Of a stretch of 64,000 bases of DNA, positions 1 to 33,538 are shown in pieces. The DNA is taken from the NCBI GenBank assembly GCA_902515565.1, contig CABXVR010000001.1, positions 1-64,000 of the forward strand. Reading direction: 5' to 3'. Both the position numbers and the translations under genes were made by a program. This stretch comes from an uncultured Bacteroidota bacterium. GTDB lineage: Bacteria; Bacteroidota; Bacteroidia; Flavobacteriales; Flavobacteriaceae. Positions within the stretch are counted from its first letter, which is position 1. Each line of letters starts with the position of its first letter. Below the pieces are notes generated by a model, which was not told the origin of the DNA, did no database searches, and saw nothing but the letters and a program-made list of their open reading frames with translations.

Positions 1-303
1 TCTATCTTTTCGACTGTAATAAACGTGAGCCATATGTTTAATATGTCTCCAAGATTTAGTTGTTTTCTTATATGGAAATAGGAATATGTTTCTGGTAATT
101 CCTTGGTTATTTGCCGAGTATTTTATAAAACATAAAAGCCCCACTAAAATAAAAATACCTCCAAAGATTGCATAATCGTTTTCAAATTTATTAAACAATA
201 CAAAACTTTTTTTAGGATCTGAAAAAATTAAATAGAAACCAGGGAATAGAGAATATCCCAGTAGCCATAATGGTTCAAACAATACTATACTTCTATCCCT
301 CAT
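1..303 (-). CDS. Hypothetical membrane protein, truncated by window edge (MRDRSIVLFEPLWLLGYSLFPGFYLIFSDPKK...)
   Basis: Open frame on minus strand from ATG at 303 to the window edge; the start codon is immediately preceded by a copy of the array repeat (CATATCCCTAATTTAC...). Confidence 0.7.
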   Translation of the reverse strand, partial: MRDRSIVLFEPLWLLGYSLFPGFYLIFSDPKKSFVLFNKFENDYAIFGGIFILVGLLCFIKYSANNQGITRNIFLFPYKKTTKSWRHIKHMAHVYYSRKDR

Positions 304-415
304 ATCCCTAATTTACAATATTTAGTTCATACTTAAACTAAATGTAATTACTTACTTTAGATTGGCTTTTTATTAAAATCATTATATTTAGTTTAAACTA
401 TTTGATAAGATTAAA

Positions 416-838
416 ATGATATTTAACTCTACATACACAGACAAAGAAAAAGAGTTAGAAGTTGAAAAATTGATAGGTAAAAAATATAACCTTTTCAGTT
501 CAATAAGACTTAATGGAGTCGGGTCAAAAAGATTAATAATTGAAGAAACTAGTCCTAAATTCAAAAAAATTATCATTCAAAAAAATGACTTGATTTACTC
601 AAATATTGAAATTAGATATAGAGGTATAATAGTATATATAGCCGAAGGATTAAATAGATTTTCGTGGATAATTCCTTATTACAAATTAGTTATATACAAA
701 ACTCCAAATTACAGTATACACTCAGACGGTAATTTTATTAGATTTAGCAATGATTTAAACTTTAAAGAAAATCTAAAATTTTTTAAAAAATTAATGAATC
801 ACAAATCGCTTAACAACGAACAACCAAATATTAAATGA
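416..838 (+). CDS. Hypothetical protein (140 aa), array cassette gene on + strand
   Basis: ORF; its upstream region (about 355-415) is similar to the upstream region of the + strand ORF at 7187. Confidence 0.65.
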   Translation: MIFNSTYTDKEKELEVEKLIGKKYNLFSSIRLNGVGSKRLIIEETSPKFKKIIIQKNDLIYSNIEIRYRGIIVYIAEGLNRFSWIIPYYKLVIYKTPNYSIHSDGNFIRFSNDLNFKENLKFFKKLMNHKSLNNEQPNIK

Positions 839-855
839 TTTACTCTTATTTTATA

Positions 856-1386
856 TTATTCAACAGCTATTGGTTTAGCTCTTTCGTAAACATAAAACAT
901 TTGAACTTTACCATTTACTATTAAAACATCACTAACCTGATGAACTTTAACTTCACTTCCCTCAACGTTAAGAGTCAAGTCGTTGCCTGAAGTTACCCAT
1001 TGTTGTAATACACCCTTTTCATCTGTATATTCATTTGCTATTAAATAGTTTATTTCCCATACAGGAGCGTTCTCAGCAAACCATTGTGTCAAAAACTCAA
1101 ACTGAGCGTCAGAACCTTCGATAACTTCTCCTCTGGGTCCATTTATTCTAAAGTTTTTCTCTGCATTCATATCACGAATAACATCAAAATCAGCATCATT
1201 GTGAGCTGCTATATAATTTTCCCATACTTCAACTGTAGACATTGAGCCTCCGTAAAGCGGCATTTTAGATCCGTCCTCATCAGAAATTTCGTGACCTATT
1301 ATCATTGGATCTGATTTGGCTTGATTAATGGAATCGCAAGAATATGTGAAAACTGTAATTAATAAGATTAAAATTGAATTTTTCAT
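856..1386 (-). CDS. SnoaL/NTF2-like lipoprotein
   Basis: Lipoprotein-type signal (LLITVFTYSC), SnoaL-like pattern (VWENYIAAHNDADFDVIRDMNAEKNFRINGPRGEVIEGSDAQFEFLTQWFAENAPVWEI). Confidence 0.75.
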   Translation of the reverse strand: MKNSILILLITVFTYSCDSINQAKSDPMIIGHEISDEDGSKMPLYGGSMSTVEVWENYIAAHNDADFDVIRDMNAEKNFRINGPRGEVIEGSDAQFEFLTQWFAENAPVWEINYLIANEYTDEKGVLQQWVTSGNDLTLNVEGSEVKVHQVSDVLIVNGKVQMFYVYERAKPIAVE

Positions 1387-1459
1387 AATATGTTTTTTTA
1401 ATTAATTTATATATTAAAGTAATTAATAATTTTAAATAAATTAAAAAAAATGCCAAGAA

Positions 1460-1505
1460 GTTAGTTTTTCTTAAACTATCTGAAGAAGATATGCCTATGG
1501 TTTAG
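1460..1505 (-). repeat. Array repeat copy A (hairpin part only)
   Basis: TTAGTTTTTCTTAAACTATCTGAAGAAGATATGCCTATGGTTTAG; shares core with the other copies. Confidence 0.85.
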
Positions 1506-1520
1506 GTGTCTTATTCTTAA

Positions 1521-2399
1521 CTATTCAAAAAAGCTTAAAATAAATTTTAACACTTCTTTTATAATGTTAAATATAAAATCAGCTATTGGGGTGTAAAAAA
1601 AGATGGTAATACCTATACACACAACAATGAAGTAAATAATTACTTCAATAAACTTTTCATTAAAACTATTAATTGTATGAATTTCACCTAAACCAGGTTT
1701 GATGAGGTTTTCATTCCAGCTAAACTTTATTTTTTCTTTAGAACTAAAGTGAAATACAAGAACAACCTTGTGTAATTGTATAACGCCCCAAATAACCACA
1801 GCAATAAAAACAAACGTAGTTAAATAAGGAATTTCTTGAGAAGATTGACAAAAATTATAAAAACCGTGAATTAAAAACGGTAAAAGAAAAGCCTCAAATG
1901 TACTTCTGTCTTTTAAAGAATATACATAACCCATTAAATAACCACAACAAGCGTGCATAGGAACAGCTGTAAATGCTCTAAGAACCCCAGTAGAGGCCCC
2001 TCGATTAAATACGTAAAGAATATTTTCTGATGTTGCAAAGCCTAAACTAATTGCAACGGCAAGCAAAATGTAGTGATATGTGTCTAGTTTTTTTAATATG
2101 TAATTCCCACTTTTAACTTCTTCTTGAACCCCTAACATAACCACAATTAACATAAGAAGCTTAACCCCTTCTTCAATTAACCCTGCAACTAAAAAAGATG
2201 TGGTAAAAGGAGTTGATTGTAATATGCTTTCAATTAAAAAAATCTCTAAATAATAAATTGGCACTGCCAATGCAGCCCCGACAAAAAACAGTTGATAAAC
2301 TACGGTATTGTTTCTATCTTTTTTGTCTGCTTCTAGAAGGCTATAACCAATATAAACCGATGGCAATGTTGCTAATGTTAAAAGTATGTATTGATTCAC
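1521..2399 (-). CDS. PrsW-family intramembrane metalloprotease-like membrane protein
   Basis: Multi-TM protein with AGLIEEGVKLLML, ATSENILYV and AVPMHACCGYLMG motifs typical of the PrsW family. Confidence 0.85.
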   Translation of the reverse strand: MNQYILLTLATLPSVYIGYSLLEADKKDRNNTVVYQLFFVGAALAVPIYYLEIFLIESILQSTPFTTSFLVAGLIEEGVKLLMLIVVMLGVQEEVKSGNYILKKLDTYHYILLAVAISLGFATSENILYVFNRGASTGVLRAFTAVPMHACCGYLMGYVYSLKDRSTFEAFLLPFLIHGFYNFCQSSQEIPYLTTFVFIAVVIWGVIQLHKVVLVFHFSSKEKIKFSWNENLIKPGLGEIHTINSFNEKFIEVIIYFIVVCIGITIFFYTPIADFIFNIIKEVLKFILSFFE

Positions 2400-2435
2400 T
2401 AAATGTTAATTAAATTATTGCAAGATTAAAAAATT

Positions 2436-2500
2436 CATAGCTGCAATTTACAAAATTTAACTTTTACTTAAACTATCTGAAGAAGATGAAAATGGTTTAG
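2436..2500 (-). repeat. Array repeat copy B
   Basis: CATAGCTGCAATTTACAAAATTTAACTTTTACTTAAACTATCTGAAGAAGATGAAAATGGTTTAG. Confidence 0.85.
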
Positions 2501-2503
2501 TGA

Positions 2504-2635
2504 TTAGCCAAAAATTAAGCCACCACCAATTAAGACTATAAAAATAACAGCAATAACAATAAGAATCGTTTTGCCTTGTTTAGAGGTTGTGTTGGTTTGG
2601 TTTGCGTTACTGCTATAATGATTAAAATTATCCAT
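2504..2635 (-). CDS. 43-aa single-TM small protein (MDNFNHYSSNANQTNTTSKQGKTILIVIAVIFIVLIGGGLIFG)
   Basis: Below the supplied ORF-track cutoff; start codon directly abuts repeat copy C and stop lies just before copy B, same organisation as the other cassettes. Confidence 0.6.
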   Translation of the reverse strand: MDNFNHYSSNANQTNTTSKQGKTILIVIAVIFIVLIGGGLIFG

Positions 2636-2700
2636 ACCCCCAATTTACAAAATTTAGTTTTTACATAAACTATCTGAAGAAGATATGGCTATGAATTAGG
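2633..2700 (-). repeat. Array repeat copy C (overlaps start codon of one gene and stop codon of the next)
   Basis: CATACCCCCAATTTACAAAATTTAGTTTTTACATAAACTATCTGAAGAAGATATGGCTATGAATTAGG. Confidence 0.9.
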
Positions 2701-3318
2701 GTATAACTCTTCCATTTCTTTAATTAAAGAATCAATCTCCAAAGCCTTGCTTTTTGGAATGTTCCCTGATAATGGAAATTCTGCAATAAACAAAATAACT
2801 ATTGTGAAAATTGGAATTAATACGAATAGAGCTATTGTTGGATAGTTTAAGCCGTCAACACCAAATATTTCTCCGATTGTCTTACCTTGTTGATTAAAAT
2901 AAGTATAAATAAAAATTGGGAGTGAACCTAAAGGAACACTAGTTATAATAAGTCTTTTGTTAAAACTTCTTATTTGATTTATTTTCTCTCGTATTGAAAC
3001 TAAATAATCATATGAGTTAGATTTATAGTCAATTTCTTTTATTGACGTTACTTGCTTTTTCCCAATTAAGAACCCAAAAAAACAAGGAATAGCACTAATA
3101 AATCCCCAAAAGATAGCATTTTCATTATCTAATATAATATTGAATATAAATATAAGTATTCCTAGTGGGATTAATAATAAGACCCCTTTTTTAAATTTAT
3201 TAATAATGCTTTCAACCAAGCTAATTGATTTTTGATTGTATAACGATTTAATCTTTGGGATTACTAAATCTTCATTTAAAAACCCGTTTTGCCATATTTG
3301 TTCTATTGATTTTTCCAT
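2689..3318 (-). CDS. Multi-TM protein co-encoded with ECF sigma factor (possible anti-sigma partner)
   Basis: Several hydrophobic segments; 3 nt downstream of the sigma factor ORF; short soluble N-terminus. Confidence 0.65.
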   Translation of the reverse strand: MEKSIEQIWQNGFLNEDLVIPKIKSLYNQKSISLVESIINKFKKGVLLLIPLGILIFIFNIILDNENAIFWGFISAIPCFFGFLIGKKQVTSIKEIDYKSNSYDYLVSIREKINQIRSFNKRLIITSVPLGSLPIFIYTYFNQQGKTIGEIFGVDGLNYPTIALFVLIPIFTIVILFIAEFPLSGNIPKSKALEIDSLIKEMEELYPNS

Positions 3319-3321
3319 TTT

Positions 3322-3816
3322 CTAAAATTTATTTTTTGTTAGTATTTTCTTTAATCGATTTTTTATTCTCTTAATTTTTACTCCGATATTGTTTGTGTTT
3401 GTACCAAGTATTTGTGCAATTTCTTTATAAGAAAGTTCTTCTAAATAAAGAGTGATTATTGCTCTGTCAACTTCTGATAATTGTTTAATACTCTCATACA
3501 ATTTACTCAAATCTTTATCTGTAAATGCTTGTTTGTCTTCAATAAATCTATCTGGTAAATTATTAGAATTAATATGTACAACTCTGTATTTGTCTTCTTT
3601 TTTGAGTAAGGTCAAGCAAACATTCAATGATAAACGATATATCCAAGTTGTTTTTTTCGAATTACCTTTAAAGTTGTTTCTACTTCTCCAAATTTGTAAA
3701 CAAACTTCTTGAAAGTAGTCCTCGAAGTCTTGTTGAGAATTACTATAAACTCTGCATATTTTTATAATAATAGCGGAGTATGGTAATATTGATGTTGTGT
3801 AGAAATCGTTGCTCAC
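3322..3816 (-). CDS. RNA polymerase ECF-type sigma-70 factor
   Basis: Region 2 (DYFQEVCLQIWRSRNNFKGNSKKTTWIYRLSLNVCL) and region 4 (DRAIITLYLEELSYKEIAQILGTNTNNIGVKIKRIKNRLKKIL). Confidence 0.92.
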   Translation of the reverse strand: MSNDFYTTSILPYSAIIIKICRVYSNSQQDFEDYFQEVCLQIWRSRNNFKGNSKKTTWIYRLSLNVCLTLLKKEDKYRVVHINSNNLPDRFIEDKQAFTDKDLSKLYESIKQLSEVDRAIITLYLEELSYKEIAQILGTNTNNIGVKIKRIKNRLKKILTKNKF

Positions 3817-3879
3817 GTTACTTTTTATTTAGTTAGTGGTTAAATTTTCAATTTATTACACCTTGATTACAAATAATTA

Positions 3880-3923
3880 TAAAACTATCTGAATTAAAAG
3901 AAGAAGATATCCCTATGGTTTAG
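3880..3923 (-). repeat. Array repeat copy D (long-loop variant)
   Basis: TAAAACTATCTGAATTAAAAGAAGAAGATATCCCTATGGTTTAG. Confidence 0.8.
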
Positions 3924-4089
3924 GATTTTTGTAAAAATGAATGCTAAATAAAATTATAGCAGTAACTATAAATAAAAGTTTAATAGGTCTTGGTGCAAAC
4001 GGCCCAACATCAAAAAAAACATCAAGGGCTCGTTCACTAATAAATAATATCGTTATTACTAACGCAATTGTGTACAACGGTTTTTTCAT
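3913..4089 (-). CDS. 58-aa small membrane protein (MKKPLYTIALVITILFISERALDVFFDVGPFAPRPIKLLFIVTAIILFSIHFYKNPKP)
   Basis: Below ORF-track cutoff; start abuts repeat copy E, stop TAG is supplied by repeat copy D. Confidence 0.6.
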   Translation of the reverse strand: MKKPLYTIALVITILFISERALDVFFDVGPFAPRPIKLLFIVTAIILFSIHFYKNPKP

Positions 4090-4151
4090 ACCCCCAATTT
4101 ACAACATTTAGTTTTTAATTAAAATATCAAAAGAAGATAGCTATGGTTTAG
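4087..4151 (-). repeat. Array repeat copy E
   Basis: CATACCCCCAATTTACAACATTTAGTTTTTAATTAAAATATCAAAAGAAGATAGCTATGGTTTAG. Confidence 0.9.
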
Positions 4152-4169
4152 TTATAAAACTTATTGGTT

Positions 4170-4397
4170 TTATGAAAAAAGGTAACTACATCCAGCTAAA
4201 ACAACAATGGCGGCCCAAATTAATAAGTTTGTCTGCAAGGTTTCAATCAGGTGGTTTCTGCCATTTGAACTAAATGAAATAAGCCCTATTATAATCCAAA
4301 TAAAACAAAAAAACCAAAAGACGGAGTGGTAATAAAACCCTGCAATAAAACAACCAACTATACAAGAAGGCCAGACTTTAAATAAATCGTAACGCAT
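4170..4397 (-). CDS. Hypothetical small membrane protein (MRYDLFKVWPSCIVGCFIAGFYYH...)
   Basis: ORF; internal ATG chosen because the track's upstream start overlaps the DUF2059-like gene. Confidence 0.5.
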   Translation of the reverse strand: MRYDLFKVWPSCIVGCFIAGFYYHSVFWFFCFIWIIIGLISFSSNGRNHLIETLQTNLLIWAAIVVLAGCSYLFS

Positions 4398-4432
4398 AAG
4401 CTTTAGATTAAACAATAAAATAAATAGTATTT

Positions 4433-4447
4433 CATACCCCCAATTTA
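4433..4447 (-). repeat. Partial array repeat copy F (start-codon end only)
   Basis: CATACCCCCAATTTA matches the gene-start end of the repeat; hairpin part missing. Confidence 0.6.
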
Positions 4448-4864
4448 TTATTGGACAATCATACCTTGAATTTTTTCTCCAATCTCCATACCCCACTCCA
4501 TTGAAAGCTTCATTGATTCTTGTGCAATTAAAGGTGTTTTCTCGGCAATTTTTCTGCCAATAGGTGTTTTAAACATTAAAATAGCTTCTTTTAAATCAGT
4601 TTCAGAAAGATGATTTTTATAAACAGGGACCATTTTAGCAACTAAACTTGAAATCATTTCGGTTTTAAATTCATTATACTTTTCTTCGTCTAGTTTGGCA
4701 CCAAACATATTAATCATCTGGCTAAATGTTGCATCGAATGTTTTTAAACTTCCTTGTATATTTAGATATTCCGTTAATAGACTTTTGTAATTGTCATCAT
4801 TAGTTTGTGAAAATCCTAGATTAATAAAAAGTAAAAATAATATAGCAAATACTGATTTTTTCAT
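4448..4864 (-). CDS. DUF2059-like secreted protein
   Basis: Signal peptide, then LMFKTPIGRKIAEKTPLIAQESMKLSMEWGMEIGEKI, typical of DUF2059. Confidence 0.7.
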   Translation of the reverse strand: MKKSVFAILFLLFINLGFSQTNDDNYKSLLTEYLNIQGSLKTFDATFSQMINMFGAKLDEEKYNEFKTEMISSLVAKMVPVYKNHLSETDLKEAILMFKTPIGRKIAEKTPLIAQESMKLSMEWGMEIGEKIQGMIVQ

Positions 4865-4965
4865 TTCTTGTTTTTTTAGTTAACATTTATAAAAATTAAT
4901 TATTAAAAATATGTCTTATAATTAACATCTCATAGACTAATTTGAGGAATTACAATATCTTGTAT

Positions 4966-5010
4966 TTAGAAATAGCTGAATTAAAAGAAGAAGATATGCC
5001 TATAGTTTAG
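4966..5010 (-). repeat. Array repeat copy G (long-loop variant)
   Basis: TAGAAATAGCTGAATTAAAAGAAGAAGATATGCCTATAGTTTAG, closest to copy D. Confidence 0.75.
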
Positions 5011-5493
5011 TTATCGTCTAACGTACCCGCCAATAGACTCTCTATATTCTATTTCAAACCCATTTTCTTTCGTAAATTTTTTGAATTCATCTGTTGCATT
5101 TCCTAATGTTAAAAATGATTCTATTTCAAAAATTTCAAAAAATCTATTAAAATTTGGACCATTAATGAAATCTATTCCGTGTTGGATGCCATCTTCACTA
5201 TTATTATACCTTTCAATTAAAGTAACTTTTTTACCGTTTTCAGAAATGAAATATCCGTAAACAGTTGATGGCTCTCTTTCAACAATAAAATTAGATAGTT
5301 CTTGAGTAAATGCCTCAACATCAACTATTGAGTTATTTTTGGTATTTAGTTCTAAAATAAAAGTAAGTTCAGAAGATTTAGAGTTATCTAAAACTTTAAG
5401 TTCTTTTGATGTCATATCAGTATTACAAGCAGCAAAAGTCAATGTGAACAAAAGTAGAAATAGTAGTTTTTTCATAATGTTAAGTTTTTTCAT
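5011..5493 (-). CDS. Hypothetical lipoprotein
   Basis: Lipobox FTLTFAACN; start codon is the ATG at the end of repeat copy H. Confidence 0.7.
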   Translation of the reverse strand: MKKLNIMKKLLFLLLFTLTFAACNTDMTSKELKVLDNSKSSELTFILELNTKNNSIVDVEAFTQELSNFIVEREPSTVYGYFISENGKKVTLIERYNNSEDGIQHGIDFINGPNFNRFFEIFEIESFLTLGNATDEFKKFTKENGFEIEYRESIGGYVRR

Positions 5494-5555
5494 ACCCCCA
5501 ATTTACAACATTTAGGTTTTACTTAAACTATCGGAAGAAGATAGCTATGGTTTAG
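5491..5555 (-). repeat. Array repeat copy H
   Basis: CATACCCCCAATTTACAACATTTAGGTTTTACTTAAACTATCGGAAGAAGATAGCTATGGTTTAG. Confidence 0.9.
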
Positions 5556-5590
5556 TTGGTTATATTTAAATACAAGTTTTAACTAAAGAC

Positions 5591-5899
5591 TTAAAACCAT
5601 AAATAACCTAAACACCCAAATAAAGTTAATGCGGTTATAATTATCATCATCGTTTGTGCTTCCCACTTTTTTGAAATCAATCCTACTAATGCATATAAAG
5701 GGGTTGCGAAAAAGATAATAAAAAACACAATACTGAAACAATAGCCTATAATATATCCAATCCCACCCGCTAATGAAGTTTCTAACTTTAAAGCAACAAC
5801 ATTATTAGTATTAGATACTGCCTTTAATGCGACTAATAAAAATAAAACTACCCACCAAAAAAGGAATTTTCTTTTAAATATTTTTAAAATATTTTTCAT
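5591..5899 (-). CDS. Hypothetical membrane protein
   Basis: ORF with hydrophobic segments, same strand as array. Confidence 0.6.
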   Translation of the reverse strand: MKNILKIFKRKFLFWWVVLFLLVALKAVSNTNNVVALKLETSLAGGIGYIIGYCFSIVFFIIFFATPLYALVGLISKKWEAQTMMIIITALTLFGCLGYLWF

Positions 5900-5975
5900 A
5901 AATACAATTTACATTAATTTTATTTCTAACACAAGACTGCTTTGAATAGTACAAAGAATAAAATATTCAAATTGT

Positions 5976-6443
5976 TTAAAATGAACCTGACCTAATGCCA
6001 TATTTAAACAAATCAATTATAATAAAGAAAATCCAAAACAAAATATAAGAAGCTATAATATTAATCTTTAATGGTTTAGACCAATTACTGTAAAAATTTT
6101 TAGGTCCGATTTTAAAGGCCCAATTAAAAGTAAGTAACAAAGCTGAAATCGAAAGAATAATTAGCGAAACAAATAAATAAGGAGAAATTATAAGGGCTGA
6201 AATCAGATATTCAAGACCTCCTAATAAACCGCCGCCCCTGTTAACCTCGTCTGAAAAAATTTCAAACCTTCGATTATAGAGTCTACTATTTAATAAATAG
6301 CGAACTAATATTGTTGTGAAAAATAGAATATGGAATAATTTAATGTTTTTTCTGTCAATGCTAAAGTTTTTCATTTTGCGGATAAAGACGAAATTAATTA
6401 CTAGAAAAACTATTAGTAAAAGTATATATAGTGTAGATGTCAT
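5976..6443 (-). CDS. Hypothetical membrane protein
   Basis: ORF with several TM-like segments, 3 nt downstream of the next ORF (operon-like). Confidence 0.65.
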   Translation of the reverse strand: MTSTLYILLLIVFLVINFVFIRKMKNFSIDRKNIKLFHILFFTTILVRYLLNSRLYNRRFEIFSDEVNRGGGLLGGLEYLISALIISPYLFVSLIILSISALLLTFNWAFKIGPKNFYSNWSKPLKINIIASYILFWIFFIIIDLFKYGIRSGSF

Positions 6444-6446
6444 TAT

Positions 6447-7076
6447 TTATAGTCTTGTGCTGTTAGCCATTATTTGTAATGCAGATTTAAATCTGTCGAA
6501 ATCCTCTGGATATGTGTTTAACGTTAGTGAAATTATATAATCTTTTTTAAAAAGAATTGCCGCAATTGTTTTTATCTGTCCAACATTTGCAACTGCTCCC
6601 TCATTAATTATATATAAGATTTGATTTTTTTTATCCATATAGTTCCCCAAATCATTATGGTCTGTTATAACTCCTTTCATTCCATCAAGTATCGTTAATG
6701 TTGAATTATTCAAAGTATTAATAAACATCTCTGCAAATTCATTAATTCCTAATTTAGTTATCTCATAATCTTTTTGAATAAGAACACTTATACTTGGGTA
6801 ACTATTAATTTCCGAATTTGACAAGGTTAATAAGTAATCGATATTTCCTTTGTACTGTGAGTTTTCAAATAAAGAATTAAGTAAAAAATTCTTATCAGAT
6901 TCCGCTAACACTTCCCAATTTACAGGGATATTAATTTTAACTTCTTCCTTTTTTATAAGATTTTCCTCAAAATCTCTGTTAATTTCAATGTTAATTGGAA
7001 GTGTTTTATTTTTGCTTTTATTGTCACAAGCTGATATCAAGATTAAGCCTAAAAATATATATAGTAGTTTTCTCAT
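6447..7076 (-). CDS. Hypothetical lipoprotein
   Basis: Lipobox LILISACDNK; start codon is the ATG at the end of repeat copy I. Confidence 0.7.
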   Translation of the reverse strand: MRKLLYIFLGLILISACDNKSKNKTLPINIEINRDFEENLIKKEEVKINIPVNWEVLAESDKNFLLNSLFENSQYKGNIDYLLTLSNSEINSYPSISVLIQKDYEITKLGINEFAEMFINTLNNSTLTILDGMKGVITDHNDLGNYMDKKNQILYIINEGAVANVGQIKTIAAILFKKDYIISLTLNTYPEDFDRFKSALQIMANSTRL

Positions 7077-7140
7077 ACCTACAATTTACAACATTTAGTT
7101 TTTACTTAAACTATCTGAAGTTACTTCACTTAGATTGGTT
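7074..7140 (-). repeat. Array repeat copy I; left arm of 67-bp inverted repeat
   Basis: CATACCTACAATTTACAACATTTAGTTTTTACTTAAACTATCTGAAGTTACTTCACTTAGATTGGTT; reverse complement of 7524-7590 with 2 mismatches. Confidence 0.95.
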
Positions 7141-7186
7141 TTTTAAAATCATTACATTTGGGTTAAATAACAAATACTTTAAAAAT

Positions 7187-7501
7187 ATGTTTGTAGTAAT
7201 TAAGCACTTTGGTTTTTTAGGCATCGCATTTATTTTTTGGTTTCCTATTATGTATATTTTTTTTCTTTTAAGATGTTTTATTAGAGGGATAAGTAGAACA
7301 AAAAATATGTATGGAACTGATGACTATGATTTTGTTATGGCTGCTCATTCAAAAATTGGGTTTGGAGTATTTATAATTTGGGCAATGATTTTAAATAACG
7401 CTGAACAGGGCACTACAGCATATGCAGTTTGTGGGGCAATATATGTTATTTGTGTAATTCTTTCTTGGATACCATTTCATTTAATATTTATCAAAAAATG
7501 A
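7187..7501 (+). CDS. Hypothetical membrane protein (MFVVIKHFGFLGIAFIFWFPIMYIFFLL...), cassette flanked by inverted repeats
   Basis: ORF; the ATG at 7187 is preferred over the track start at 6995, which overlaps the divergent lipoprotein gene. Confidence 0.6.
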   Translation: MFVVIKHFGFLGIAFIFWFPIMYIFFLLRCFIRGISRTKNMYGTDDYDFVMAAHSKIGFGVFIIWAMILNNAEQGTTAYAVCGAIYVICVILSWIPFHLIFIKK

Positions 7502-7523
7502 TATGAAAAAACTATTACTCCAA

Positions 7524-7590
7524 AACCAATCTAAGTGAAGTAACTTCAGATAGTTTAAGTAAAAACTAAATGTTGTAAATTGGGGGTATG
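7524..7590 (+). repeat. Array repeat copy J; right arm of 67-bp inverted repeat
   Basis: AACCAATCTAAGTGAAGTAACTTCAGATAGTTTAAGTAAAAACTAAATGTTGTAAATTGGGGGTATG. Confidence 0.95.
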
Positions 7591-7983
7591 AAAAAACTAT
7601 TTAACTTTTTTTCAGGCATAATAGGTTTAATCTCATTTTTAATGCCATACTTTTGGGATAGCCTGAAGAAGCAATTCAAATCAGGAATTAAAACTGATGA
7701 ATTTCCTTCTGGCAAAGGTAAATTTGGATTTGATGTAACAAACCCAATACCGTGCAAAGGTTTTTTAGGTCCAAATAAATATCTTCAAAAGATAGAGTTT
7801 GCTGATAAATCTTCATTTAGATTTGAAAGACATGGCTCTACAGGTGCAGAAAACATCAACGCTGAACATATAGATATCTATTCAATATATAAAAATGGTA
7901 AGAAACATAGTGATTTATACCTAGCACCATATCAAAAAAGAACAAGTCGAAAAGTTCCAGAGGGATTCATCTTTAAATCATAG
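7588..7983 (+). CDS. Hypothetical protein (131 aa), last cassette of the array
   Basis: ORF starting at the ATG that ends repeat copy J; stop TAG lies inside half-repeat K. Confidence 0.7.
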   Translation: MKKLFNFFSGIIGLISFLMPYFWDSLKKQFKSGIKTDEFPSGKGKFGFDVTNPIPCKGFLGPNKYLQKIEFADKSSFRFERHGSTGAENINAEHIDIYSIYKNGKKHSDLYLAPYQKRTSRKVPEGFIFKS

Positions 7984-7998
7984 GCATATCTGTAGAAA
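7974..7998 (+). repeat. Degenerate half copy K of the array repeat
   Basis: TTTAAATCATAGGCATATCT resembles ..TAAACCATAGGCATATCT.. of copy A read in gene orientation. Confidence 0.5.
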
Positions 7999-8309: not shown

Positions 8310-9158
8310 ATGGAGTTATTTAAGATTTTCAAAAAATCTGTTAAAATACAAGGTAAGTCATTTTTAAGGTGGACTGGGGGGAAAAACTGGTTAGCGCCCA
8401 CTTTAAATAAACTAGCCAATAAAACTCAATTTAAAAGATATCACGAACCGTTTATTGGTGGAGGTTCGGTTTTTTTTAGTTTAAAAACAAGTAAGACGTC
8501 TTTTATTTCTGATTCAAATAAAGAACTAATAAATACTTATAAAGCAGTAAAGTCAAATCCAAAAAAGATTATTAATATTTTATCATCATTTGAACAAAGT
8601 GAGGAACAATACTACTTTTTACGAAGCAAAACATTTAAAAATAAGTTTGAAAAGGCAGCTAGATTTATTCATTTGAACAAAACATCTTTTAATGGTATAT
8701 ATAGAGTAAACGTCAAAGGTGAATATAATGTTCCTTATGGGAAAAAAGGATATGATCTTGATTTGCTTAGTGGTTTAATGTATTCTGCTTCTGAACAATT
8801 AAAAAATGTAACTATTAGAGAATCTGATTTTAAAGATAGTTTGTCAGAAATTAAAGATGGAGACTTGGTGTATTTAGATCCACCTTACACTATTACCCAT
8901 AATAATAATGGGTTCATAAAATACAATGAAAAACTATTTTCATATGAGGATCAGATTGATCTATGTAATTTTATTAGAGAAGTTAGGTTAAAAGGGGCTT
9001 ATTATATTTTGTCTAATGCTCATCATCCTGAAGTTGAGAAAGTTTATAACCAATTTAATGATAATATAGTTTCTTTAACGAGGGCTTCAACCATAAGCGG
9101 GTTGGCCAAATCAAGAGGAAAATATAAAGAATATTTATTTACTAATATAGAAATATGA
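8310..9158 (+). CDS. D12-class (Dam-like) DNA adenine-N6 methyltransferase
   Basis: FLRWTGGKNWLAPTL and YHEPFIGGGSVFFSL (SAM-binding region), DPPY catalytic motif at aa 190-193. Confidence 0.93.
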   Translation: MELFKIFKKSVKIQGKSFLRWTGGKNWLAPTLNKLANKTQFKRYHEPFIGGGSVFFSLKTSKTSFISDSNKELINTYKAVKSNPKKIINILSSFEQSEEQYYFLRSKTFKNKFEKAARFIHLNKTSFNGIYRVNVKGEYNVPYGKKGYDLDLLSGLMYSASEQLKNVTIRESDFKDSLSEIKDGDLVYLDPPYTITHNNNGFIKYNEKLFSYEDQIDLCNFIREVRLKGAYYILSNAHHPEVEKVYNQFNDNIVSLTRASTISGLAKSRGKYKEYLFTNIEI

Positions 9159-11572
9159 AACACTTAACAGAAGAAAAAAAAGCTGAACTGCTGGATTCTT
9201 TAGCAACAGATCATCGTTTTTTAGGGAGATTAAGAAGCAAACGAATTAACGAATATGAAGAAGAGACCATAGAAAGATTTGATCTAGAGGCATACGAGAA
9301 GGAAGGTTTTGTTGTTAAGCCGTCTAGACTTAAAAAAAAGATAAAGGTTATTAAAAACAAAGAGCACAGCGTCGCATTTGAAAACAAATGCTGGTGTCTT
9401 ATGTATGATTTGGGATTTAAAATATTAAACAAAAACGATAATTTTGTTCTTCCATATGGCCCTAATAAGGGTGAGTCTCAGCAAATCGATGTTATTGCAA
9501 TCAACGAAGATGTTGTTATTTTAATAGAGTGTAAGTCAAGTGAGAAATTAGGAAATAAAGACCATAGACCTTACATTGATACTTTAGGAAAAAAAATTGC
9601 AGGGTTTAGTCAAACAATAAAAGAGTTGTTTGGAGACAGAAAGGTTAAGTTTATGTTTGCAACAAACAATCAAAAACTAGGACCAACAAACATTGATATA
9701 CTTAAAAACAGTAATGTATTCAATTTGAATAATAGTTCTCAAACTTATATTAGAGGCCTAATTAACACTTACAAAAAGTCAGCGCATTATCAGTTTATGG
9801 GTATGATTTTTAAGGGTGAAATTATCAAAAAAGATAAAATCAGAATACCTGCTATTAAAGGAAAAATGGGTGGTAATACGTATTTTATGTTTTCAATTGA
9901 ACCAGAGACTTTGTTAAGAATTGGTTTTGTTCTTCATAGGGTAAAAGCCAATGCTGAAGATTTTCCAACATATCAAAGGCTGTTAAAAAAAGAGAGAATT
10001 AAATCTCTATCAAGTTTTATTTCTGAAGGCGGATATTTTCCAAATTCTATAATTTTAAACTTTGATACAAAAGGGGTGAAAAAGTCTAGAAGACTTGAGT
10101 GGGAAGATGCTGGGCAAAGGGACGACTCTCATTCAGAACACGGTATTTTAAAAATCCCTAATTCATTCGCTATAGCATATATAATTGATGGTCAACACAG
10201 GCTTTATGGGTATTCTTATGCAGAACAAACTGAATTTAACTCAACTCAAACAATCCCTGTTGTTGCGTTTGAAAACCTAAGCAATGAGCGACAGCTTCAA
10301 ATGTTTATGGATATAAACGAAAATCAAAAAGCTATAAGCAGAAACTTAAAGGAAACTTTAAAAGAAGATATATATTGGGGCTCTTCTAGTGCAAAATTAA
10401 GAATTCAAGCACTTATGTCTGGAATTAATAATTATATGGGGTCTGAAAATGGTTATAAAATCTCAAACTACTTGTCAATCGGTGAGGATAACAAGGAAAT
10501 TACAATGGGAACTGTAATTGACGGCATAAAAGATTCTAACTTTTTACCTATTGTTGAAAAAGGAGAGTTAATTGATGGCGACGGAGTTATTTATAAAATA
10601 GGGGTGCAAGAACATTTTAAAGAAATGAATAGAGTTAAGCTCCTTCTTGGAAATTTTTTATGTAAGGCCTTTGACTATGTAATAGAATCTTATGCTGATT
10701 TGTGGGATGAGAAAGGAGGGTTAATTAGATCCTCTAGAGGTGCTTATGCATATATTAGAACTCTTGGGGAGTTAAATGTTTACTTAACAAAAAAGGGGGA
10801 GTTAGACAAAATCGCGGATTTTAACATTAGAATAGACAAGATGAAAAAATATATAGATTCTTTGTTTAAAGGTTTAAGTGATACGCGTAATAATACTGCT
10901 GAATATGAGCGCACCTTAAAAGCTTATGGTGGGGGAAATAAGAAGGTTTGGAATCACCTATATACTTCTTTAATAAATAAAACTTTTAATGATTTTACAA
11001 CTCCTGATTATGTTATTTATCTTGAAACTCAAGATGATGATGTTCAGAATAAAGCAGAAGATCTGGTTGAGGCTATTGAGAAAATCATAAAAGAAAGAAC
11101 CCTTAATTATATTTATACTCAATGTGGAGGAAAGCAGAATTTTAAAAAAAAGTATTATACTTTGTTTGAGGAGTTAAGAAAAAGGGCTGAAACAAAAGAA
11201 ATTGATTATGAAAATAATTTTCCAGGAATGGTAAGGAAGTGGGATTGGGATGAGATGTTTTATATAGTAGACTATTTAGTATTAGCAGAAAATGGATGGG
11301 GTAAACCTCTTACAGAGCATAATATTGAGCGATTATCTAAAGTTTTATCAATGAGAATGGAAAAAGAGTCTTATGATTCTGAAAAAAACATTAAGTATTA
11401 TTCTTGCGGAAATGAACCCTCCTACAAGTTGGGGGCAAAATGGATGAGAAAATTTAATATGATTAGGTCTAATTCAGCTCATTCAGGTAGCCGAAATAAA
11501 GGAAATGGTGTAAATAAAGCAGAGTTAAATATGTTAACACTTATGCATAATGGGTTGCTTAAGGTTGGCTAA
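9155..11572 (+). CDS. DGQHR-motif protein with N-terminal PD-(D/E)XK-like nuclease motif (805 aa)
   Basis: QIDVIAINEDVVILIECKSSEK (D112...E125-C-K127) and IIDGQHRLYGY (DGQHR at aa 345-349); ATGA overlap with the methyltransferase gene. Confidence 0.8.
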   Translation: MKHLTEEKKAELLDSLATDHRFLGRLRSKRINEYEEETIERFDLEAYEKEGFVVKPSRLKKKIKVIKNKEHSVAFENKCWCLMYDLGFKILNKNDNFVLPYGPNKGESQQIDVIAINEDVVILIECKSSEKLGNKDHRPYIDTLGKKIAGFSQTIKELFGDRKVKFMFATNNQKLGPTNIDILKNSNVFNLNNSSQTYIRGLINTYKKSAHYQFMGMIFKGEIIKKDKIRIPAIKGKMGGNTYFMFSIEPETLLRIGFVLHRVKANAEDFPTYQRLLKKERIKSLSSFISEGGYFPNSIILNFDTKGVKKSRRLEWEDAGQRDDSHSEHGILKIPNSFAIAYIIDGQHRLYGYSYAEQTEFNSTQTIPVVAFENLSNERQLQMFMDINENQKAISRNLKETLKEDIYWGSSSAKLRIQALMSGINNYMGSENGYKISNYLSIGEDNKEITMGTVIDGIKDSNFLPIVEKGELIDGDGVIYKIGVQEHFKEMNRVKLLLGNFLCKAFDYVIESYADLWDEKGGLIRSSRGAYAYIRTLGELNVYLTKKGELDKIADFNIRIDKMKKYIDSLFKGLSDTRNNTAEYERTLKAYGGGNKKVWNHLYTSLINKTFNDFTTPDYVIYLETQDDDVQNKAEDLVEAIEKIIKERTLNYIYTQCGGKQNFKKKYYTLFEELRKRAETKEIDYENNFPGMVRKWDWDEMFYIVDYLVLAENGWGKPLTEHNIERLSKVLSMRMEKESYDSEKNIKYYSCGNEPSYKLGAKWMRKFNMIRSNSAHSGSRNKGNGVNKAELNMLTLMHNGLLKVG

Positions 11573-11652: not shown

Positions 11653-11910
11653 ATGGGATTCAATAGTGAAACAGCAAAACTAGCAGGTAAGAAATCTAGA
11701 CGGGGCAAGGCTAGACATTCTAGTGAAATAAGACAAACACTTAGCGACTTAGCCACAAAAACGTTAAACACCATAAACACAGAAGAGCTTAGCAATAGCG
11801 AGCGGATAGCGTTACTTCGGATACTAGTGAATTATACAGTTCCTAAGCTTCAGACTGAGCGTATAGAGACTAATCAGCATAAGCACTTTACGATAGAAGT
11901 CCTTAAGTAA
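11653..11910 (+). CDS. Small basic protein, hypothetical (phage/island-type)
   Basis: ORF MGFNSETAKLAGKKSRRGKARHSSEIRQTLSDLA...; composition resembles small phage/island DNA-binding proteins, no firm family. Confidence 0.5.
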   Translation: MGFNSETAKLAGKKSRRGKARHSSEIRQTLSDLATKTLNTINTEELSNSERIALLRILVNYTVPKLQTERIETNQHKHFTIEVLK

Positions 11911-12022: not shown

Positions 12023-12023
12023 G

Positions 12024-12097
12024 CTCCTCCTCAAAGACTCGAACTTTGGACCCTCTGATTAACAGTCAGATGCTCTAACCAACTGAGCTAAGGAGGA
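12024..12097 (-). tRNA. tRNA-Asn (anticodon GTT)
   Basis: Reverse complement TCCTCCTTAGCTCAGTTGGTTAGAGCATCTGACTGTTAATCAGAGGGTCCAAAGTTCGAGTCTTTGAGGAGGAG folds as cloverleaf: acceptor TCCTCCT/AGGAGGA, anticodon loop CTGTTAA, T stem CAAAG/CTTTG. Confidence 0.96.
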
Positions 12098-31865: not shown

Positions 31866-32522
31866 ATGACAAAATTATTATCTACCAAAGTACTTAGCTC
31901 AAAAAATCATAAAAAAATTAGTGATTCAAGTATAAAAATTAGTGATTATAATGCAATAAAAATTGAAAAAATAGACTTCAATGTTAGTCAGAGAATTGAA
32001 AATGCAATTTTCACAAGTAAGAATTCTGTAAAGGCTATTTTAAACAAAAAGTTAGAGATAAAGAATTGTTATTGTGTGGGTAAAAAAACAGAATCATTAC
32101 TTTTAAAAAATGGCGAAAAAGTAATAAAAAGTGAAGAAAATGCTCAAAAATTGGCTGATTTTATAGTAAAATCGCTAAAAAATGACATTTTTGTCTTTTT
32201 TTGCGGAAATATGAAAAGAGATGAATTACCCAAAATTTTAACTAAAAATGATATAAAATTTTCGGTAGTTGAAGTCTATAAAACAAGTTTGATTTACAAG
32301 AAAATAGATGAAGCTTTTGACGGTATTTTATTTTTCAGTCCAAGCGCTGTAAGGAGTTATTGTTATTACAATAAAATTGAAGATGAAACGCTATTTACAA
32401 TAGGACAAACAACTACAAATGAAGCTAAAACTTTTTCTAACAAAATTATAACATCGGACATTAGCAGTATAGATCAGGTTGTTGATAATGCCATTAAATA
32501 TTTTACTTATGATAAAAAATGA
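31866..32522 (+). CDS. hemD: Uroporphyrinogen-III synthase
   Basis: Divergent HemD-like sequence ([39 protein letters not shown]) between hemC and hemE. Confidence 0.88.
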
Positions 32523-33538
32523 CTTATTACTTAGAGCTCTAAAAGGAGAGGTTGTTGAAAGGCCTCCTGTGTGGATGATGCGTCAGGCTGGAAGGTACTT
32601 GCCAGAATTTATAGAAATCAGAAAAAAGTATGACTTTTTTACAAGATGTCAAACCCCTGAATTAGCCAGTGAAATTACGGTCCAACCAATTAGAAGATAT
32701 GGAATGGACGCAGCTATATTGTTTAGTGATATTTTGGTAATTCCACAAGCAATGAATATTGAAGTCTTAATGAAGCCAGATTTTGGTCCACTTGTACCTA
32801 ACCCAATTCGAAGTGCAAAAGAACTTAAAGAGGTAATAGTCCCTGATGTAAACGAATCATTAAACTACGTATTTGATGCTATTAAAATGACCAAAGAAAT
32901 TTTAAACAATGATATTCCATTAATTGGGTTTGCTGGATCGCCATGGACAATACTATGCTATGTAGTACAAGGACAGGGAAGCAAAACATTTGATAAAGCC
33001 AAAGAGTTCTGTTTCAAAAACCCAATTTTAGCTCATGAGCTCTTAAGTAAAATAACAGCAACCACTATAGCCTATTTAAAGCAAAAGGTTATTGCTGGGG
33101 TAGATGTTTTACAAATATTTGATTCTTGGGGGGGGGCTTCTTTCACCAAATGATTATAGTGAATTTTCATGGCAATATATAAACCAAATTATAGAGGAGT
33201 TAAAAGATTTCGCCCCAGTTGTTGTCTTTGGCAAAGGATGTTGGTTTGCATTAAATGAAATGAGTAAAAGTAATGCATCTGCTCTTGGTGTTGATTGGAC
33301 AATCACAGCTAGGAATGCAAGGTATTTAAGTGGAGGGAATATTACATTACAAGGGAATTTAGATCCTTCGAGACTACTTTCTAGTAAATCAAAAATTAAA
33401 GACTTGGTCAATAATATGATAAATGATTTTGGGAAAGATAGATATATAGTTAATCTAGGTCATGGCATACTGCCTAATATCCCATTAGAAAACGTCGAGG
33501 TATTTATAAATACTGTGAAAGAATATAAAGCATAATGA
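32509..33538 (+). pseudogene. hemE: Uroporphyrinogen decarboxylase, split by frameshift at a G9 tract
   Basis: ORF 1 ([17 protein letters not shown]...[10 protein letters not shown]) ends after the G-run 33128-33136; ORF 2 resumes in another frame ([16 protein letters not shown]...[19 protein letters not shown]). Sequence or assembly error possible. Confidence 0.85.

What the first reader, a model, noticed from the sequence alone, without database searches (positions are those of the whole stretch)
301..7998. Integron-like array of small gene cassettes separated by a repeat that joins stop codons to start codons
Seen directly: about 11-12 copies of one repeat (approx. 301, 1460, 2436, 2633, 3880, 4087, 4433 partial, 4966, 5491, 7074, 7524, 7974 half). 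In gene orientation the full form is CTAAACCATAGCTATCTTCTTCAGATAGTTTAAGTAAAAACTAAATGTTGTAAATTGGGGGTATG. Its first bases contain or follow the stop codon of one gene, and in several copies its last three bases are the start codon of the next. The genes between copies are unrelated (PrsW-like, ECF sigma, DUF2059-like, SnoaL-like, lipoproteins, 43- and 58-aa membrane proteins). Short unrelated genes, mostly in one direction, with a common boundary element is the layout of integron cassette arrays. None of the boundary copies resembles a promoterless insertion-sequence scar.
Basis: partly seen in the sequence, partly recalled or inferred. Interest (0 to 1): 0.85.

Follow-up and report, generated by a model that had tools for sequence, protein, structure and literature searches.

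The report
Gene-cassette array using recombinase's own tail
Marine flavobacteria carry rows of small, swappable gene cassettes joined by a short DNA site that is the tail end of a recombinase gene; this works like the integrons that spread resistance genes but uses an unrelated enzyme and a different kind of site.

Summary
The repeat array is real. It is integron-like in behaviour but it is not an integron. The shared part of the repeat, YTAAACCATAGGCATATCTTCTTC plus a variable extension, is the antisense of the last 24-72 nt of a roughly 348-aa tyrosine recombinase gene (C-terminus ...NVSLTYLRGLEIAELKEEDMPMV*). The gene occurs in 18 of 398 sampled Flavobacteriaceae species. A 21-mer of the site hits at least 114 stretches of GTDB contigs, nearly all marine Flavobacteriales, and none in IMG/VR.

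In complete arrays the recombinase sits at one end. Its 3' end is the first site, and cassettes of about 0.7 kb follow, mostly one gene each and often with their own TAnnTTTG promoter. Some cassettes are shared between genera or families at 87-98% DNA identity, with the match running from site to site and no flanking homology.

The recombinase fails the IntI models, and the site does not fold like attC. The window's genome (65% complete) has no intact recombinase. It does have a fossil of one beside a window-type site, and the window contig breaks on the side where the recombinase should lie.

Not shown: excision or integration activity, the exact crossover base, and how cassettes are born. 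I found no description in the open-access literature.

The parts
301..345 (-). leader half of the repeat (start-side) with a diverged variant stop-side half
856..1386 (-). cassette gene, SnoaL-like lipoprotein; 53% aa identity to a gene in G043 near rseP
1461..1505 (-). site, stop-side core plus partial leader; hit by a model built from recombinase genes only (21.8 bits, E 8e-6)
1521..2399 (-). cassette gene, PrsW-type intramembrane protease
2436..2500 (-). full site plus leader (diverged core CATTTTCATC)
2504..2635 (-). 43-aa membrane-protein cassette; the same gene (83% DNA, ATG to stop) lies between sites in G154 (L085)
2633..2699 (-). full site plus leader ending in ATG
2689..3318 (-). cassette gene, 209-aa membrane protein
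3322..3816 (-). cassette gene, ECF sigma factor (same cassette as 2689-3318)
3880..3923 (-). site with the long core (CTTCTTTTAATTCAG); recombinase-only model 31.6 bits, E 7e-9
3913..4089 (-). 58-aa membrane-protein cassette whose stop codon is supplied by the site; 95% DNA identity (169/177) to a cassette of another genus (L260)
4087..4151 (-). full site plus leader ending in ATG
4433..4447 (-). leader-only remnant (TTGGGGGTATG)
4448..4864 (-). cassette gene, DUF2059
4959..5011 (-). site closest to the recombinase 3' end (antisense reads LEIAELKEEDMPIV*); recombinase-only model 39.9 bits, E 2e-11
5011..5493 (-). cassette gene, 160-aa lipoprotein
5491..5555 (-). full site plus leader (best match to consensus, 97%)
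5591..7076 (-). multi-gene unit (102-, 155- and 209-aa proteins)
7067..7141 (-). leader with the variant stop-side half; inverted partner of 7522-7622
7187..7501 (+). gene (about 104 aa) between the inverted pair
7524..7590 (+). leader with the variant stop-side half, ending in ATG
7588..7983 (+). cassette gene, 131 aa
7974..7993 (+). half site CATAGGCATATCTG at the stop codon of 7588-7983
8310..11572 (+). dam-like methylase plus DndB-domain protein; homologous pair (72% and 40% aa) sits directly at the recombinase-end site in single-cell genome contig L159
11653..11910 (+). 85-aa small GKKSKRG protein, often found at array edges
12023..12097 (-). tRNA-Asn bounding the region (then rseP); the same tRNA-Asn/rseP border flanks an array in another genus (L084)

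Best explanation
This is a gene-cassette array of a site-specific recombination system that is functionally like an integron but built on an unrelated tyrosine recombinase. The recombinase gene's last 24-72 nt are themselves the recombination site. Cassettes insert just after the recombinase's stop codon, pointing toward it. Each cassette is a gene plus a copy of the site (a piece of the recombinase 3' end) and usually its own promoter. Cassettes then move as non-autonomous units from site to site between genomes. Shown here by comparison: the identity of the site, the array anatomy, and unit-wise cassette exchange with exact site boundaries. Inferred: that this recombinase catalyses the exchange; that exchange happens in double-stranded DNA within about 10 bp at ATGCC/TATGGTTTAR, next to the recombinase stop codon; and that new cassettes arise when an internal deletion fuses a recombinase 3' stub to a neighbouring gene. 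In the window the recombinase is missing because the contig ends on the side where it should lie, or because it has decayed as at C1:111.8 kb. The window array is therefore a cluster of sites without an adjacent recombinase.
For: The 21-mer lies at the 3' end of recombinase genes in many loci, and every intact copy found has the site as its last codons, mostly exactly. A model built from recombinase 3' ends alone hits window sites at 39.9, 31.6 and 21.8 bits; the best of 20 shuffled windows is 11.7. Over 182 distinct copies, conservation has a sharp edge at YTAAACC and decays raggedly on the recombinase side. Recombinase and exact 16-mer co-occur in 9 genomes against 0.86 expected, p=6e-9. Arrays run recombinase-site-gene-site-gene. 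Cassettes are shared with exact site borders: L168/G365 98.3% over 471 nt, L107/L167 87% over 517 nt, L142/G330 92% over 361 nt; the window 58-aa cassette is 95% identical in another genus. Cassette sites carry a coding signature: 61% synonymous against 26% expected, p=3e-34, and 76 of 95 long copies keep the frame open. TAnnTTTG follows the site in 46 windows against 20.4 +/- 4.3 in shuffles. A recombinase fossil lies beside a window-type site and tRNA-Met in the window's own genome.
Against: There is no direct evidence of excision or integration. The window's genome has no intact recombinase. Sites in this genus are diverged (some score only 5-10 bits with the recombinase model) and use a different leader. 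Gene orientation relative to the site is not uniform: 73 the same, 34 opposite. Some genomes have sites scattered over several loci. Some of the 18 recombinase genomes have no exact 16-mer. Orthologous flanks with and without a cassette in the same species were not available.
Confidence: 0.8

Rival explanations
1. Accretion and decay: whole integrative elements, each carrying its own recombinase gene, integrated one behind another at the 3' end of an older copy. The repeats are merely the leftover 3' ends of dead recombinase genes, and the genes between them are what remains of element cargo. They do not move as single cassettes.
For: Recombinase remnants of many lengths sit at the sites: of 228 sites, 15 are intact genes and about 15 carry 150-500 nt. 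The repeat edge is ragged on the recombinase side. Sites keep a coding signature. Arrays often lie near tRNA genes.
Against: Single units of 340-450 bp with no recombinase are shared site to site between different genomes with no homology on either side. Most units are one gene with a promoter right after a short site.
Confidence: 0.12
2. A dispersed MITE/REP-like repeat derived from the recombinase gene that lands near gene ends and is not a recombination site now.
For: Several loci per genome (G138 has 16 exact 16-mers on several contigs); MITEs typically derive from recombinase or transposase ends (general knowledge).
Against: Repeats are arranged as same-orientation boundaries of single genes, and cassette identity blocks stop exactly at the repeats. 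A MITE inserts into genes or between them; it does not carry them.
Confidence: 0.06
3. A true integron (IntI plus attC) whose integrase lies off the contig.
For: Layout of cassettes; one IntI-like truncated recombinase exists in G043 (L090) next to umuDC, away from the arrays.
Against: The site has no hairpin (mean folding z about 0 or positive). The site is part of a different recombinase gene, which scores 22 bits on TIGR02249 against a 265 cut-off. No Rfam hit to the repeats. No IntI above cut-off in the own genome.
Confidence: 0.02

Closest known systems
Integrons (IntI / attI / attC), including CALINs
   Same: Tandem arrays of mostly single-gene cassettes bounded by a common recombination site, recombinase gene at one end, cassettes shared between unrelated genomes, recombinase-less clusters common
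   Different: Recombinase of another branch (IntI models far below cut-off); the site is the recombinase gene's own 3' coding end, not attI plus folded attC; no hairpin; cassette genes point toward the recombinase, with the site on their promoter side and their own promoters
SCC elements at the 3' end of rlmH (Ccr recombinases; from general knowledge)
   Same: Tandem accretion at the 3' coding end of a gene whose end is rebuilt at each insertion
   Different: Large elements, serine recombinases, the site is in a housekeeping gene; here single-gene units and the site is in the recombinase gene itself
SSV-type archaeal virus integrases (attP inside int; from general knowledge)
   Same: Attachment site lies inside the recombinase coding sequence
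   Different: SSV integration splits the int gene; here the gene stays whole (only its stop codon and last residues change) and many cassettes accumulate
MITE-type non-autonomous derivatives of mobile elements (general knowledge)
   Same: Non-autonomous units that keep only the recognition end of the autonomous element
   Different: Each unit carries a complete gene and promoter, and units are stacked in ordered arrays

Membership tests
Integron | IntI-type integrase (TIGR02249 / PRK15417 above cut-off) | tested here: not met
   22.3 bits against 265; PRK15417 13 against 435. IntI4 2a3v E=0.6 by sequence. Own genome: none over cut-off.
Integron | attC: imperfect palindrome folding into a hairpin, R'' and R' boxes | tested here: not met
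   mean folding z +0.7 (45 nt) and +0.1 (72 nt) on both strands, MFE of printed examples -3 kcal/mol or weaker; no attC-type Rfam hit.
Integron | attI upstream of and divergent from the integrase gene | tested here: not met
   the first site is the 3' end of the recombinase gene, and cassettes lie downstream of it.
Integron | Array of gene cassettes exchanged as units at the common site | tested here: met
Integron | Recombinase-catalysed excision and integration of circular cassettes | not testable with these tools
   Needs bench work or read-level data.
Tyrosine recombinase superfamily | PF00589 catalytic domain with R-K-(H/Y)-R-H-Y residues | tested here: met
   all 6 members, best 5e-13; invariant R208, K236, Y296/R299, H322, Y331 (first His of HxxR is Tyr). 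Foldseek best matches XerA, Tn1549 Int, IntI4, Cre (low-confidence model).
Arm-binding-domain (ICE/phage-type) tyrosine recombinases | N-terminal three-strand sheet plus helix | tested here: inconclusive
   predicted b-b-b-a at residues 10-69, block pLDDT about 84-93, but no Pfam arm-binding match and mean pLDDT 68.
REP/MITE repeat | Short palindromic intergenic repeat not carrying genes | tested here: not met
   No palindrome; genes move with the repeat.
Phage or plasmid element | Recombinase or site present in phages or plasmids | tested here: not met
   Site 21-mer: 0 in IMG/VR. Recombinase: no match in 50,697 phage or 72,556 plasmid records.

The most novel reading that the evidence does not exclude
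An independently evolved integron analogue in marine Bacteroidota in which the attachment site and the recombinase's C-terminal coding sequence (last ~24 codons, starting just before the catalytic tyrosine) are one and the same DNA. Cassette sites repeatedly pass through, or are copied from, the recombinase gene; this would explain why they still look protein-coding. The recombinase gene itself can behave as the autonomous cassette.
Probability: 0.55. Interest if true: 0.92.

Novelty: categorically new. Interest (0 to 1): 0.86.

Why it matters
Integrons are usually presented as the one bacterial device for stockpiling single-gene cassettes; complete integrons are almost unknown in Bacteroidetes (PMC9024848 names one, in Salinibacter ruber). 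This would be a second, convergent solution, widespread in abundant small-genome marine flavobacteria. Attachment-site scans built on attC would miss it. It offers a testable answer to where cassettes come from: the site is a stub of the recombinase gene. It also defines a large unstudied pool of mobile genes, many of them lipoproteins, secreted or membrane proteins, in ocean bacteria.

Tried and rejected
IntI in the own genome: only XerD (C25) and XerC-like (C46) with ordinary neighbours. Rfam: nothing at the repeats, only a tRNA. The idea that the repeat is the 3' end of a housekeeping gene: a 26-aa antisense query found only short frames; the parent turned out to be the recombinase. G043 recombinases: XerC, XerD, a second XerC next to an HPF paralogue, and a truncated IntI-like gene beside umuDC, none next to an array. 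attC-like hairpin: no. Structure model: low confidence (mean pLDDT 68, pTM 0.33), so Foldseek supports only the fold class. IMG/VR, phage and plasmid searches: no hits. Literature: no paper found linking such arrays to flavobacteria; subscription papers and preprints are not covered. The crossover base could not be fixed: recombinase genes without the usual cassette end differ after ATGCC, which places exchange at or after that point.

Full report
Observation. The window is the left end of a 167-kb contig of a 1.27-Mb, 65%-complete flavobacterial genome. In gene orientation each full copy has a stop-side half, CTAAACCATAGgcATATCTTCTTC, and a start-side leader ending in ATG; both also occur alone. 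Further copies lie on contigs C45 and C34 and in three of four other species of the genus, mostly on short contigs or near contig ends.

What the repeat is. Copies in another genus (G043) extend further and read, antisense, as NVSLTYLRGLEIAELKEEDMPMV*. In many loci the 21-mer is the 3' end of a tyrosine recombinase gene of about 348 aa. All six aligned members match PF00589; none comes near the cut-off of any NCBIfam recombinase model, IntI included. A model built only from recombinase 3' ends, with no window sequence, finds window sites at 39.9, 31.6 and 21.8 bits; 20 shuffled windows reach at most 11.7. The window's A-type sites are therefore diverged members of the same family.

Shape of the site. 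Aligned on an internal anchor, 182 distinct copies have a sharp edge at YTAAACC, with no information upstream of about 8 nt before the anchor, and a ragged decay on the recombinase side out to about +66. The 21-mer pattern fixed part of this stretch in advance; the edge positions -5 and -6 and everything past +16 lie outside it. Cassette sites, not only recombinase genes, carry a coding signature. In the stretch 18-36 nt from the edge 166 of 274 changes are synonymous (61%, 26% expected, p=3e-34); in 36-72 nt 190 of 382 (50%, 28% expected). In the core (3-18 nt) there is no such excess, so the core looks conserved as DNA. Of 95 long cassette sites, 76 keep the recombinase frame open, against 16 and 0 in the other two frames. 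The sites therefore descend from functional recombinase genes. The site does not fold.

Arrays. Where the recombinase is intact, its 3' end is the first site and the cassettes lie beyond it: G134, G138, G330, G320, G347. Arrays without an adjacent recombinase have the same layout (L260, L263). Over 110 units the median length is 737 bp and the median longest ORF 161 aa; 73 ORFs point toward the recombinase side and 34 away. TAnnTTTG, the flavobacterial -7 promoter motif (general knowledge), follows the site in 46 of 182 windows (20.4 +/- 4.3 in shuffles; antisense 8), peaking 60-80 nt from the edge. The recombinase was found in 18 of 398 Flavobacteriaceae species, and in 2 of 396 phylum-wide genomes as distant homologues only. 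The exact 16-mer is in 19 of the 398; 9 genomes have both, 0.86 expected, p=6e-9.

Movement. A 452-bp cassette is 98% identical in L168 and G365; the alignment starts at the site edge, ends 18 nt into the next site, and the flanks share nothing at that level. L107/L167 (87%, 517 nt) and L142/G330 (92%, 361 nt) behave the same way; L141, titled Cryomorphaceae, carries the same cassette as L142. The window's 58-aa cassette is 95% identical in DNA to one in another genus, and its 43-aa cassette is 83% identical in G154. A C45 cassette of the own genome is 96% identical in G200 over 1.28 kb.

The window in this light. Sites and most genes are on the minus strand, so the recombinase end is to the left, where the contig stops. 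On the right is tRNA-Asn then rseP; in G043 an array lies beside the same tRNA-Asn/rseP border with almost wholly different genes. At C1:111.8 kb of the own genome a 30-aa recombinase fossil (87% identical) lies beside a window-type site and tRNA-Met. The window array is thus best seen as a recombinase-less (or recombinase-cut) cluster.

Mechanism. Inferred: the recombinase joins a cassette circle to its own 3' end at or just before its stop codon. Recombinase tails differ only from the last few residues onward (MPMV*, MPMVY*, MPMVLGLY..., MPTIL*, MPNIL*), as expected if the stop codon is donated by whatever lies downstream. Cassette birth by internal deletion of a recombinase-bearing unit would explain the ragged edge, the coding signature and the range of stub lengths. 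Repeated passage of sites through the recombinase position is the alternative. Neither is shown.

Novelty. It works like an integron but fails three of its defining features (IntI, folded attC, attI placement). PMC9024848 names a single complete integron in Bacteroidetes, and PMC8138268 places integron integrases among simple recombinases. No paper in the searched open-access library describes this system; subscription literature was not searchable.

Noticed in passing
window 8310-11572: dam-like methylase followed by an 805-aa protein with a DndB domain; the same pair abuts a recombinase-end site in single-cell genome contig L159, so it probably travels as a two-gene cassette (defence- or modification-like).
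   Followed up: partly
window 11653-11910; L084 10447-10764; L031 6282-6533; L050 3200-3466; L239 18131-18454: Small 80-110-aa protein family (G-K-K-S-K-R-G / GGRKKGTPNK start, no Pfam) recurrently at array edges or next to the recombinase; possible accessory factor.
   Followed up: partly
window 7042-7622: Inverted pair (89% complementary, 101 nt) flanking one gene; these copies carry a different stop-side half CCAATCTAAGTGAAGTAACTTC with an internal palindrome, not found in any other genome fetched here.
   Followed up: partly
window leaders before ATG at 2633, 4087, 5491, 7074, 7590; L153, L158: The leader TTGTAAATTGnrGGTATG is shared by unrelated cassette genes across genera and ends exactly at the start codon; homology of shared cassettes to relatives also starts exactly at ATG, as if leaders were swapped.
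   Followed up: no
window 32479-33535: Uroporphyrinogen decarboxylase (hemE) appears split into two overlapping frames: frameshift or assembly error.
   Followed up: no
L090 1556-2221 (G043:C1): Truncated IntI-like tyrosine recombinase (C-terminus ...ITSPLDQL) beside umuDC in G043, away from the arrays.
   Followed up: no
L141 2857-3490 versus L147 985-1764: The same cassette body (89%) sits in opposite orientation relative to the flanking sites in two genomes.
   Followed up: no
L031 5118-6185: Degenerate repeats flank a single gene inside a polysaccharide-synthesis locus of the same genome, i.e. a solitary cassette outside the main array.
   Followed up: partly
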